From: Anderseniella sp. Alg231-50
Lineage (GTDB): Bacteria; Pseudomonadota; Alphaproteobacteria; Rhizobiales; Aestuariivirgaceae
Assembly: GCF_900149695.1 (NCBI RefSeq)
Contig: NZ_LT703006.1
Span: 124,001-188,000 of the forward strand
Direction of reading: 5' to 3'
Length of the DNA stretch: 64,000 nucleotides
The translations under genes and the position numbers were made by a program. Each line of letters begins with the position of its first letter. Positions within the stretch are counted from its first letter, which is position 1. The notes beneath the pieces were generated by a model, which had not been told where the DNA came from, searched no databases, and was given only the letters and a program-made list of their open reading frames with translations. Shown piece by piece: positions 37,720 through 52,537 of the stretch.

Positions 37720-37836
37720 AGTCAGGGCACAGTTCTGCCGGTTCGAACACTGCAAGTGAATTGAAAGGTAAACCAAACTCCTCACCCAAACTGTGAAGAT
37801 TCTAACAGTCAGCACAGCTTCATGGATCTACGATCA

Positions 37837-37886
37837 CTCCTAAAAGGAGGTCCGATAGTGGACCATCAGGCGCTTGGCCGCCAAGC
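37837..37886 (+). promoter_or_regulatory. Three consecutive hairpins in the leader of the astacin-propeller gene
   Basis: CTCCT/AGGAG (37837-37849), GGTCC/GGACC (37849-37864) and GCTTGG/CCAAGC (37872-37886) stand in a row, just before the AGGAGG ribosome site at about 37890. The first hairpin also contains AAAAGGAGG, so the leader could fold in more than one way. Confidence 0.45.
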
Positions 37887-37901
37887 ATAGGAGGCTGTGA
37901 C

Positions 37902-40900
37902 ATGGGACTCGTTAATACAATATCTAACCGTCGATGGCCGCACGGTGTTGTGCCCTATGAGATCGATGAAATTGCTTTTCCGGGAGGCAGCGCCGAGCGG
38001 CAGGTCATACTCGACGCCATCCAACAGTTCAATAATCGCACGGTTATGCGTCTGGTTAGAAGAGATGCTGACATGCACGAGGACTACATCGTGTTTCGAG
38101 AAAGCGATGTGGCCTGCTCCAGCTATGTCGGTCGGCAACAAACCGGGTCACAAGACGTGCTCTGCGATATTGGCGGCAGTCACCAGACGCAGATTCCCAA
38201 TCAGCAAAGCAAAGCAGCACCTGCACTGGCTGTGTTCGACGGAAGGTTGCATATGGTGCACCTGGGCGTCAGTTCAAACACCCTCTGGCATTCGCAATTC
38301 GACGGCAACAGCTGGACACCCAATATTAAAATTCCAGATCAAAAAAGCAAAACACCTCCCGCGCTGGCCATGTTCGACGGCGCGTTACACATGGTTCATC
38401 TCGGCAATAATTCGAACACCATCTACCATTCCATGTGGAACGGAACAGAGTGGACACCCAATGTTCCCATCGGCGACCAGAAGAGTAAACGTGCTCCGGC
38501 GCTGGCTGAATATGACGGTGAACTGCATATGGTCTATGTCGGCAGCAGTTCCAACAAGCTTTGGCACGCCAGATACAATGGTACCAGCTGGTCGAACGCT
38601 GTTGAAATCACTGGTCAGAAGAGCAAGGCGTCACCCGCGCTGACCGTGCTCAACAACGATTTGCATATGGTGCATCTGGGAAACAGTTCCAACAAGATAT
38701 GGCATTCCCGGTTTGATGGTGACACCTGGTCGCCGAACAATGAAATCGAAGGCCAAAAGAGTAAAGCGGCACCTGCAATTGCCACGTTGGGGTCCGAGCT
38801 TCATATGGTGTATCTGGGCGATAACTCGAGCAATATCTGGATTTCAAGGTTCGATGGTGCCAATTGGTCAACTGCCACAAGGATCCCGGAACAGCAGAGC
38901 AAAGCGTCGCCCGCACTGGCTGTGTTCGACGCGAGATTGCATATGGTGCAACTGGGAAACACATCAGACAATCTTTGGCATTCCCTGATTGACGAGGCAG
39001 CGCTGGGCGCCAACATGTGGGTCGTGGTGCACGAGATTGGACATGCCATAGGCTTGCATCATGAACAAAACCGCGAAGACCGGGACAACTTTGTCATTGT
39101 TGATTTCGACAATATAATCGACGAGTTCGAACCCAACTTTGAGAAGCGGACCGAGGATGCGGACGACAGCGGCTTATATGACTACGCCTCGATTATGCAC
39201 TACGGGCAATTTAACTTTACCGAACGCTTCGACAACAAGCGCGTTCCCCATCAGCAAAGCAAGGCATCACCCGCGCTTGCCATGTTCGATGGCAATTTGC
39301 ACATGGTCCACCTTGGCGGCAGTTCAAACAATCTCTGGCATTCGATTTTTGATGGCAATGAGTGGACGCCCAACATCCAGATAGCGGACCAGAGCAGCAA
39401 GGCGCCACCATCACTTGCCGCGTTCAACAATGAACTGCATATGGTCCATCTCGGCGACAACTCGAACACCATCTATCATTCCAGGTGGAACGGTACCAAT
39501 TGGTCACCCAACATTCCGATTCCGAACCAGAAAAGTAAACGGACCCCTGCCCTTGCCGTTTTTGACGGCGCCTTGCACATGGTGCACTTGGGCAACAGTT
39601 CCAACAAGATCTGGCATTCAACCTTCGATGGCACAAGCTGGTCGCCAGACGTTGAAATTGATGGCCACAAGAGTAAGTCGACGCCAGCGCTTGCCGTATT
39701 CGGAAATTCACTTCACATGGTGCACCTCGGCAACACCTCAAACAACATCTGGCATTCGCAGTTCGATGGCAACAGTTGGTCGCCAGGTGAAAAGATACCC
39801 GACCAGAAGAGTAAGGCGGCACCATCGCTGGCCGCATTCAATGGTCAATTGCACATGGTACATCTGGGCAACAACTCAAATACCATCTGGCATTCACGCT
39901 TTGACGGCACGGAGTGGACCCCAAACGTCAAAATTCCGGGTCAAAAGAGCAAAGCATCACCTGCGCTTGCCGTGTTTGGCGGTGAATTACACATGGTTCA
40001 TCTCGGTGATAGCAGCAATGACATCTGGCATTCGCTGTTCGACGGCAATGTGTGGCATTATCCTCTGCAGCCGGCAATAAGACAGGGACAGGCAACAACC
40101 GGGTTCTTGGGCAATTTCGTCGACATCGGCCTCCTGAATGATTTTTCAGCCGGCGACATTGAGACTATTTATGCATTCTACCCGATCTGGTCCGCAAATG
40201 TCGAAATACCCAATCAGCTCAGCAAGGCATCTCCGACATTGGCCGAATTCAGTGGCGAACTGCACATGGTGCATCTTGGCGACAGTTCCAACGACATATG
40301 GCACTCAAGATCTGACGGCAACAGCTGGATGCCAAATACTCGAATTCCGGATCAAAAAAGCAAAGCACCGCCTGCACTTGCCGTATTCGACGCCCGCCTG
40401 CACATGGTGCATCTGGGCAATCGCACAAACCGCATATACCATTCGATGTTCGACGGAAGTATTTGGACACCGAACTATCAGATACCAGACCAGCTGAGCA
40501 AGGCACCGCCGGCACTCGCAGTGTTCCAGGGCCGTTTGCATATGGTGCATTTGGGCAACAGTTCGAACCATATTTATCACTCGACTTTTGACGGTACGCG
40601 CTGGACGCCGAACGTCCGTATTCTGCAGCAATCGAGCAAAGCTGCGCCGGCCATCGCCACATTCGATGGCGAACTTCATATGGTGCATCTTGGCGACAGC
40701 TCAAACGACATTTGGCACTCGCGCTATGATGGAGGCCGGTGGAGTCCAAATGTGAGAGTCCACAACCAGCGAAGCCGGATATCTCCGGTCCTGGCCCAGC
40801 ACGACGGCAAGTTGCATATGCTTCACCTTGGCGAGCACTCCCGCAACATCTGGCATTCAATCTTCGACGGCACGTGGCGGCCCAATGTCATGATCCACGA

Positions 40901-41009
40901 CCAAACCAGCAAAGCAACGCCTGCACTGGCTGAGTTCGACAGTGCCCTGCACATGACGCATCTCGGAAAGACATCAAACCGAATATGGCACAGTGCACAC
41001 GAAAGATAA
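37902..41009 (+). CDS. Astacin-like (M12A) metalloprotease with three inserted or appended six-blade propeller arrays
   Basis: 1035 residues. The astacin fold appears in three pieces: residues 1-96 (WPHGVVPYEID, ACSSYVGRQ, Cys72 and Cys88), residues 371-446 with the zinc motif HEIGHAIGLHH (377-387), HEQNREDRD and the Met-turn SIMHYG (430-435, Tyr434 the fifth ligand), and residues about 723-761 (GQATTGF..., DFSAGDIETIYAFYP). Between and after them are three arrays, each of six repeats of 46 residues with starts at 98, 144, 190, 236, 282, 328; 448, 494, 540, 586, 632, 678; and 769, 815, 861, 907, 953, 998. Each blade reads roughly IPDQKSKAxPALAxFDGxLH then MVHLGNSSNxIWHSxFDGxxW, an Asp-box-like turn. 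Six-bladed lectin-like propellers are the likely fold (inference). No signal peptide is seen. Strong AGGAGG ribosome site. It looks like an island between the GFA gene and alaS. Confidence 0.93.
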   Translation: MGLVNTISNRRWPHGVVPYEIDEIAFPGGSAERQVILDAIQQFNNRTVMRLVRRDADMHEDYIVFRESDVACSSYVGRQQTGSQDVLCDIGGSHQTQIPNQQSKAAPALAVFDGRLHMVHLGVSSNTLWHSQFDGNSWTPNIKIPDQKSKTPPALAMFDGALHMVHLGNNSNTIYHSMWNGTEWTPNVPIGDQKSKRAPALAEYDGELHMVYVGSSSNKLWHARYNGTSWSNAVEITGQKSKASPALTVLNNDLHMVHLGNSSNKIWHSRFDGDTWSPNNEIEGQKSKAAPAIATLGSELHMVYLGDNSSNIWISRFDGANWSTATRIPEQQSKASPALAVFDARLHMVQLGNTSDNLWHSLIDEAALGANMWVVVHEIGHAIGLHHEQNREDRDNFVIVDFDNIIDEFEPNFEKRTEDADDSGLYDYASIMHYGQFNFTERFDNKRVPHQQSKASPALAMFDGNLHMVHLGGSSNNLWHSIFDGNEWTPNIQIADQSSKAPPSLAAFNNELHMVHLGDNSNTIYHSRWNGTNWSPNIPIPNQKSKRTPALAVFDGALHMVHLGNSSNKIWHSTFDGTSWSPDVEIDGHKSKSTPALAVFGNSLHMVHLGNTSNNIWHSQFDGNSWSPGEKIPDQKSKAAPSLAAFNGQLHMVHLGNNSNTIWHSRFDGTEWTPNVKIPGQKSKASPALAVFGGELHMVHLGDSSNDIWHSLFDGNVWHYPLQPAIRQGQATTGFLGNFVDIGLLNDFSAGDIETIYAFYPIWSANVEIPNQLSKASPTLAEFSGELHMVHLGDSSNDIWHSRSDGNSWMPNTRIPDQKSKAPPALAVFDARLHMVHLGNRTNRIYHSMFDGSIWTPNYQIPDQLSKAPPALAVFQGRLHMVHLGNSSNHIYHSTFDGTRWTPNVRILQQSSKAAPAIATFDGELHMVHLGDSSNDIWHSRYDGGRWSPNVRVHNQRSRISPVLAQHDGKLHMLHLGEHSRNIWHSIFDGTWRPNVMIHDQTSKATPALAEFDSALHMTHLGKTSNRIWHSAHER

Positions 41010-41129
41010 GGGCGGCACTGTGGTGCGGGAGATCCTGCGTCCGTGTTTGAATGCTGGCCTTTGTATTCAGGCCCGGATGAGGTCTACGGACTAAAACGAG
41101 TGAGATGAGATAGGTTCCCTAGACTCCGG

Positions 41130-51939: not shown

Positions 51940-52269
51940 TCAGTCGGCGGGTTTTGAAAGAACAGTGGTCCACCGCACCATTTTGAGTGAGGGTAACTGG
52001 TCCAGGGCCGCATCCATCAACTGGAAATCCGAACGATCACTGTCGCAAAGGCGCACGAGAATACTGCCGTCGCGGCGATACCGCAGGCCGTCGCAGATCA
52101 GGCCTGCGCGCGCGAACAGCGAAACCAGATCCGAAAGGGCCTCCAGTTCTTCTACTTCGAACTCAACCTCGAAGGACAAGGTGCAATGCGGGAGTGATCC
52201 TCGCGCCTCAACAATGCGCGCGACCGGGACGCTGGACTTGGCAGACAGATCGGTGGAATGAACATTCAT
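51940..52269 (-). CDS. Small ACT-like protein of unknown function
   Basis: 109 residues from the ATG at 52267-52269, which has GAAGGA upstream. The stretch LSFEVEFEVEELEALSDLVSLFARAGLICDGLRYRR, then ILVRLCDSDRSDF, has the beta-alpha-beta pattern of an ACT regulatory domain (inference). No neighbour points to a partner enzyme. Spacer 52270-52537 shows no supported gene. Confidence 0.6.
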   Translation of the reverse strand: MNVHSTDLSAKSSVPVARIVEARGSLPHCTLSFEVEFEVEELEALSDLVSLFARAGLICDGLRYRRDGSILVRLCDSDRSDFQLMDAALDQLPSLKMVRWTTVLSKPAD

Positions 52270-52537
52270 CGTGTTTCCTTCGCCTTGCAGGCACATTGAA
52301 GTTGAAGAAAACGGGGATGTTCTCTTCGCTTTAGCTGTATTTATTCCGCGCCCGCAAGCTGATGCTCAAATCGGCGCTCTCGATCAATAATGGATACATT
52401 CTATCGGCAATCGAGTCCAGCAGAACCACGTCATGCATTTCAATGGGCCAATGAGCACAATGTATCCGCACGCCCCTGTCCGGTGTCTGCGGGTGCTGGT
52501 GGCAGCTGTCGATTGTTTCCCTGCAGCCCAACCGGGA

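What the first reader, a model, noticed from the sequence alone, without database searches (positions are those of the whole stretch)
37902..41009. Astacin protease with complete six-blade arrays nested at two points inside its catalytic domain and a third at its end
Seen: the parts of an astacin fold occur in the right order but are separated. N-terminal part 1-96 (with Cys72, Cys88), zinc motif 377-387 and Met-turn Met432/Tyr434, and the C-terminal DIETIYAFYP near 751-761. Between and after them are three arrays of exactly six 46-residue blades. Known: M12A enzymes normally keep these elements within about 200 residues, and six-bladed propellers close as a ring. Inference: each insertion is a closed propeller whose ends meet, so the protease can fold around it. 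The result would be a zinc protease decorated with three binding heads, perhaps lectin-like, for targeting glycosylated or extracellular substrates. I know of no such nested design by name.
Basis: partly seen in the sequence, partly recalled or inferred. Interest (0 to 1): 0.9.

Follow-up and report, generated by a model that had tools for sequence, protein, structure and literature searches.

The report
Metalloprotease interrupted by lectin-like propellers
A bacterial protein-cutting enzyme of the astacin family has two complete six-part, probably ring-shaped, lectin-like domains inserted inside its catalytic part and a third at its end; the architecture is real and seems rare, while the ring shape and the sugar binding are still unproven.

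Summary
ORF 37902-41009 (+, 1035 aa) carries one astacin (M12A) domain in three collinear pieces with zinc site and Met-turn intact, interrupted twice by six 46-aa repeats and followed by six more. About 6 and 10 model positions lie unmatched at the interruptions. Sequence favours closed six-bladed propellers: each array opens with a lone outer strand that its sixth repeat lacks; stand-alone six-repeat units match an array end to end (hhalign E 4e-50), and their profile matches Photorhabdus PHL/PLL lectins in the PDB (E 2e-8), though the window arrays alone do not. Repeats are old and under purifying selection, so no assembly artefact. One congener has only about 35 bp where the gene sits. No nested relative was found in the genomes sampled. 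The one fold obtained was useless (pLDDT 36), so ring closure is not shown. Weak point: no signal peptide, no propeptide. The principle is known (fibronectin repeats inside gelatinases; propeller of prolyl oligopeptidase); this combination appeared in no search made here.

The parts
37902..38186 (+). Astacin N-terminal piece, aa 1-95 (Cys72, Cys88); no signal peptide or propeptide before it
   Evidence: PF01400 model 1-73 on aa 11-89, E 4.7e-10 alone; own model 25-99 on aa 7-85
38187..38984 (+). Array A, aa 96-361: six 46-aa repeats, opening with a lone outer strand (TQIPNQ), sixth repeat lacking it
   Evidence: CV39L model 29.9 bits, E 2.8e-7
38985..39236 (+). Astacin zinc piece, aa 362-445: HEIGHAIGLHHEQNREDRD and Met-turn SIMHYG
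   Evidence: PF01400 model 79-151, E 7.6e-22 alone; H377 E378 H381 H387 E388 M432 Y434 invariant; own model 106-182 on aa 370-444
39237..40043 (+). Array B, aa 446-714: six repeats, blade order like array A in register
   Evidence: CV39L model 43.5 bits, E 2.2e-11
40044..40184 (+). Astacin C-terminal piece, aa 715-761 (FSAGDIETIYAFYP)
   Evidence: own model 193-216 on aa 738-761, weak; piece alone 6.5 bits; no Pfam hit; D752 and Y760 invariant
40185..41006 (+). Array C, aa 762-1035: six repeats, opening with a full outer strand (IWSANVEIPNQ); the protein ends right after the third strand of the sixth repeat
37889..37894 (+). AGGAGG ribosome-binding site, 7 nt before the ATG
   Evidence: read in the sequence
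37720..41129 (.). Extra DNA relative to a congener: the gene lies between the GFA-family gene and alaS, which in G002 are about 35 bp apart
   Evidence: gene names

Best explanation
A single-chain astacin-type zinc protease into whose catalytic domain two six-bladed, lectin-type beta-propellers have been inserted, one between the N-terminal part and the zinc helix and one between the Met-turn and the C-terminal end of the domain, with a third at the C-terminus. Shown: one astacin domain in collinear pieces, intact catalytic residues, three six-repeat arrays, strong purifying selection on the repeats. Inferred: each array closes as a ring because its first strand completes its last blade, so entry and exit lie side by side and the protease folds around it. 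Inferred further: the propellers are multivalent binding heads, probably for glycans or glycoproteins, that hold substrate next to the cleft, as the fibronectin type II inserts of gelatinases hold collagen. The route out of the cell, if it leaves, is unknown.
For: Astacin E 3e-31 in two collinear pieces; own 20-sequence model gives three collinear pieces 25-99, 106-182, 193-216, the last one weak; catalytic residues invariant. Exactly 6+6+6 repeats; leading lone strand and truncated last repeat in all three. Stand-alone six-repeat proteins in Streptomyces and Rhizobium and a C-terminal six-repeat part in Nonomuraea; hhalign of the arrays against these: probability 100, E 4.4e-50, 265 columns. 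Their profile matches PHL/PLL lectins, kelch propellers and SAKe6 proteins. CV39L lectin model E 6.6e-19. A and B alike in register: only 9 of 720 blade orders, the true one included, score as high. pS 0.78, pN 0.24, 153 of 153 blade pairs pN<pS.
Against: No usable structure model. The arrays alone have no significant PDB match (best E 0.084; phmmer of the whole protein finds 17 sequences, all astacin-type). CV39L scores are far below its cut-off and absent for array C; the three stand-alone six-repeat proteins do not match it at E 0.001. No signal peptide or propeptide, and no TrbI or VipB match in the genome, so an extracellular role lacks a known route. A-C and B-C show no in-register likeness (225 and 620 of 720 orders as good). 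Activity and sugar binding untested.
Confidence: 0.5

Rival explanations
1. Same architecture, but the inserted propellers work as a gate: they crowd the cleft, admit only short or unfolded peptides and stand in for the missing propeptide as the safety device, as the propeller of prolyl oligopeptidase does.
For: Both inserts flank the zinc piece; no propeptide and no signal peptide; a propeller capping a peptidase and likely regulating substrate access is described for a prolyl oligopeptidase (PMC12325989, passages).
Against: Repeats resemble lectin and kelch propellers; a third array sits at the C-terminus, outside the core, which gating does not need.
Confidence: 0.2
2. Inactive astacin used as a scaffold that displays three binding heads.
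For: Two large insertions near the active site; C piece poorly conserved (6.5 bits alone).
Against: Zinc and Met-turn residues kept; the zinc piece alone scores 78.3 bits against a cut-off of 22.5.
Confidence: 0.13
3. The arrays are not three closed rings but open, or swapped with each other, around the core.
For: No confident model; sequence alone cannot tell which strand completes which ring, and blades of different arrays are as alike as blades of one (A-B in register 68%, within arrays 55-66%).
Against: Six repeats each time, lone first strand plus truncated last repeat each time, end-to-end match to independent six-repeat units.
Confidence: 0.12
4. Assembly error or recent tandem duplication.
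For: Repetitive gene, seen in one genome only.
Against: Synonymous sites between blades near saturation (pS 0.78), one open frame of 1035 codons, uniform GC across the six pieces (0.514-0.540).
Confidence: 0.02

Closest known systems
Astacin family M12A (crayfish astacin, tolloid, bacterial astacins)
   Same: HExxHxxGxxHE, Met-turn SxMHY, N-terminal part and C-terminal Asp/Tyr in order
   Different: Domain cut twice, by roughly 270 aa each; no signal peptide or propeptide
NCBIfam LegP (NF045530), bacterial astacin
   Same: Best NCBIfam match, 152.6 bits; that LegP too lacks a signal peptide is recalled
   Different: Half the cut-off of 300; model of 244 positions has no room for the inserts; host genome has no TrbI match
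CV39L family lectin (NF052350)
   Same: Matches arrays A and B over most of the model; that CV39L is a six-bladed lectin is recalled
   Different: 68.2 bits against a cut-off of 350; not nested in a protease
Stand-alone six-repeat proteins of Streptomyces, Rhizobium, Nonomuraea
   Same: Six repeats of the PALAxF-xGxLxxxxxG...W type; end-to-end profile match
   Different: Not nested; function unknown
Photorhabdus PLL/PHL lectins
   Same: Related repeat, through the stand-alone proteins; N- and C-terminus close together in PLL3 (PMC6943638, passages)
   Different: Seven blades; no direct match of the window arrays
Gelatinases MMP-2/MMP-9
   Same: MMP-2 has three collagen-binding fibronectin-like repeats inserted in the catalytic domain and a C-terminal hemopexin-like domain (PMC6416301, passages); that the insertion lies just before the zinc helix, and that hemopexin is a four-bladed propeller, is recalled
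   Different: Fibronectin type II modules, not propellers; one insertion site; matrixin, not astacin; animals
Prolyl oligopeptidase
   Same: Propeller combined with a peptidase domain, likely regulating access (PMC12325989, passages); that the peptidase domain is split around the propeller is recalled
   Different: Serine peptidase, one seven-bladed propeller

Membership tests
Astacin M12A (PF01400) | Profile score over the curated cut-off | tested here: met
   109 bits against 22.5
Astacin M12A (PF01400) | Zinc motif HExxHxxGxxHE and Met-turn with Tyr | tested here: met
   H377 E378 H381 G384 H387 E388, M432, Y434 invariant among 7
Astacin M12A (PF01400) | Contiguous domain of about 200 aa | tested here: not met
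   Pieces spread over 761 aa
Astacin M12A (PF01400) | Signal peptide and propeptide | tested here: not met
   The first possible start is 11 residues before conserved Trp12; no predictor was run
Astacin M12A (PF01400) | Zinc-dependent proteolysis | not testable with these tools
   Needs protein
LegP equivalog (NF045530) | Score over the cut-off | tested here: not met
   152.6 against 300
LegP equivalog (NF045530) | Type IV secretion system in the host | tested here: inconclusive
   No TrbI (PF03743) match in the own genome, E. coli and Caulobacter controls positive; other components not searched
CV39L family lectin (NF052350) | Score over the cut-off | tested here: not met
   68.2 against 350; arrays A 29.9, B 43.5, C none
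CV39L family lectin (NF052350) | Glycan binding | not testable with these tools
   Needs protein
PLL/PHL seven-bladed lectins | Seven blades | tested here: not met
   Six repeats in each array
Six-bladed beta-propeller | Closed ring of six four-stranded blades | tested here: inconclusive
   Sequence pattern fits; model pLDDT 36
Gelatinase (MMP-2/9) | Matrixin catalytic domain (PF00413) | tested here: not met
   20.6 bits against 24 for the whole protein, zinc piece 23.1; Astacin 109

The most novel reading that the evidence does not exclude
The first metzincin whose catalytic domain carries two complete nested six-bladed lectin propellers: a one-chain protease in which two glycan-sensing rings sit on either side of the zinc site and could both aim and gate cleavage, showing that closed propellers can be dropped into enzyme loops like plug-in modules.
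Probability: 0.45. Interest if true: 0.75.

Novelty: new variant of a known kind. Interest (0 to 1): 0.6.

Why it matters
Inserted domains normally need adjacent ends. A closed propeller meets that condition, so this gene would be a natural case of a propeller acting as a plug-in module, twice in one enzyme. It parallels the gelatinases, which carry substrate-binding modules inside a metzincin domain, and offers one compact test of whether such inserts aim or gate a protease.

Tried and rejected
Structure: the only accepted job (P0001 alone) gave pLDDT 36.1 and pTM 0.37; no fold search was run on it because such a model gives meaningless matches. An alignment of aa 1-453 with astacins (A7) put their N part into the propeller and was not used for folding.

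Assembly artefact rejected: synonymous divergence near saturation. Target-site duplications: no shared 8-mers in the 121-base stretches compared at either insert. HYPLQPAIRQGQATT, just after array B, resembles the stretch that follows the Met-turn in the model; echo of the insertion event or chance, unexplained.

Profile noise: Pfam DUF2510 passes its cut-off of 24 (24.3-35.6 bits) but over 10-16 residues, LRR_5 and Coatomer scraps stay below theirs; dismissed. Fungal_lectin on array B (16.4 bits, cut-off 25.3) and the A6 hits (sialidases E 2e-4 over about 67 positions, NS1A-binding protein E 0.004) are only weak support.

Rows dropped: of the 27 zinc-motif frames collected, 20 were kept for the model (7 without the HE..R.D pattern left out; L038 and L043, alike, were both kept there). 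L043 was left out of A5 and A7 as a duplicate of L038.

Full report
Observation. ORF 37902-41009 is as described: 1035 aa, ATG start with AGGAGG seven bases upstream. No earlier ATG, GTG or TTG exists in the frame, and the N-terminus is not that of a signal peptide (by reading; no predictor was run). Eighteen repeats lie in three runs of six at 46-aa spacing, with one step of 45 in the last array.

Protease. Pfam Astacin matches at E 3e-31 in two pieces, model 1-73 on aa 11-89 and 78-155 on aa 371-446. Against PDB sequences, phmmer finds tolloid-like 1 and crayfish astacin in the same two pieces: astacin residue 82 aligns with aa 91 and residue 89 with aa 374, so array A stands in place of about six residues just before the zinc motif. 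A model built here from 20 other astacins places a third piece, 193-216 on aa 738-761. That piece is weak: -0.1 bits inside the full protein, 6.5 bits alone (E 0.0011 among four targets), no Pfam hit. D752 and Y760 are invariant in a seven-protein alignment, as are the zinc and Met-turn residues; in an alignment of 13, D752 is nearly invariant and Y760 is not listed.

Arrays. All three open with a lone outer strand (TQIPNQ, KRVPHQ, IWSANVEIPNQ), and their sixth repeat stops after the third strand (in array B a short GNVWHY remnant follows). This is the velcro closure familiar from propellers (recalled) and would put entry and exit side by side. Independent six-repeat units exist: a 281-aa Streptomyces protein, a 314-aa Rhizobium protein and the C-terminal part of a Nonomuraea protein. 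hhalign of the three arrays against these three gives probability 100, E 4.4e-50, 265 columns. The profile of these three matches Photorhabdus PHL (E 2.4e-8), PLL2, PLL, PLL3, kelch-like 20 and SAKe6 proteins, 20 distinct PDB sequences in all. Against this: the window arrays alone reach only sialidases at E 0.084, and the six-sequence profile loses the PLL hits and keeps sialidases (2e-4) and a kelch-type NS1A-binding protein (0.004; that it is a kelch propeller is recalled). NCBIfam CV39L lectin scores 68.2 bits, cut-off 350; arrays A and B match singly, C does not, and the stand-alone proteins do not match it at E 0.001.

History. Blade pairs differ at 0.78 of synonymous and 0.24 of nonsynonymous sites on average; 153 of 153 pairs have pN below pS. 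Arrays A and B look like copies of one six-repeat unit: only 9 of 720 blade orders, the true one included, score as high as theirs; A-C and B-C do not show this (225 and 620 of 720). The gene has lower GC (0.51-0.54) than most of its surroundings (mostly 0.54-0.64). In congener G002 the flanking GFA and alaS genes are about 35 bp apart; G001, G003 and G005 have other DNA there, and the G004 contig ends there. So the gene was gained at a variable spot, or lost from relatives.

Distribution. P0001 was searched in 69 genomes of its family, own included: 5 match, and the four others only over 72-164 residues. LegP-model searches of 100 relatives and of 398 genomes of the phylum (own genome in both counts) gave matches in 5 and 8 genomes; only the own genome has two pieces in one frame. 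Array B matched 4 of 385 genomes of the class, own included, with one convincing propeller protein elsewhere (G722). A pattern scan of genome contigs gave 19 loci, none nested. These are samples and a narrow pattern, so rare nested relatives may exist.

Structure. The full-length single-sequence model is not usable (pLDDT 36, pTM 0.37), although its strands recur with the repeats. The array-only job was never accepted (last try). Ring closure therefore rests on sequence.

Mechanism. Best reading: a protease aimed by multivalent binding heads, two of them nested in its catalytic domain. [quoted passage not shown] A rival is gating, as proposed for a prolyl oligopeptidase (PMC12325989, passages). 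The missing signal peptide and propeptide count against a plain secreted enzyme. The own genome has no TrbI and no VipB match; type I and other routes were not tested.

Literature. Searches for astacin with beta-propeller and insertion (3 papers), astacin with lectin, bacterial and domain insertion (0), metzincin with propeller (23 papers, 15 listed) and CV39L (0) showed no such design in the listed titles and abstract beginnings; those papers were not opened. PLL3 was read in passages (PMC6943638).

Noticed in passing
37720-41129: The stretch between the GFA gene and alaS is a variable spot: about 35 bp in G002, about 2 kb with other ORFs in G001, 1.4 kb in G005, 2.6 kb in G003.
   Followed up: partly
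37858-37890: A GTG mini-ORF of about 10 codons after AAGGAGGT ends inside the ribosome-binding site of the protease gene, out of its frame; possibly a leader (read).
   Followed up: no
L065:4456-4935 and window 51946-52424: In congener G003 a stretch beside the GFA gene matches window 51946-52424 at 77%, so DNA found elsewhere in the window lies at this spot there.
   Followed up: no
L037-L043: Ordinary short astacin genes occur in 7 IMG/VR contigs, two of them in L039; L038 and L043 from different contigs encode the same sequence over the 240 aa compared.
   Followed up: no
L071 (Tolypothrix plasmid), H12 (Streptomyces plasmid): Related repeats lie under genes annotated as a family 18 glycoside hydrolase and a PI-specific phospholipase C domain protein, so this repeat may be joined to other hydrolases too.
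   Followed up: no
L073:682-2472: G722 has a 596-aa protein with about six propeller-type repeats and a long C-terminal part of unknown kind; weak NCBIfam beta propeller lectin match, 21.3 bits against 200.
   Followed up: partly
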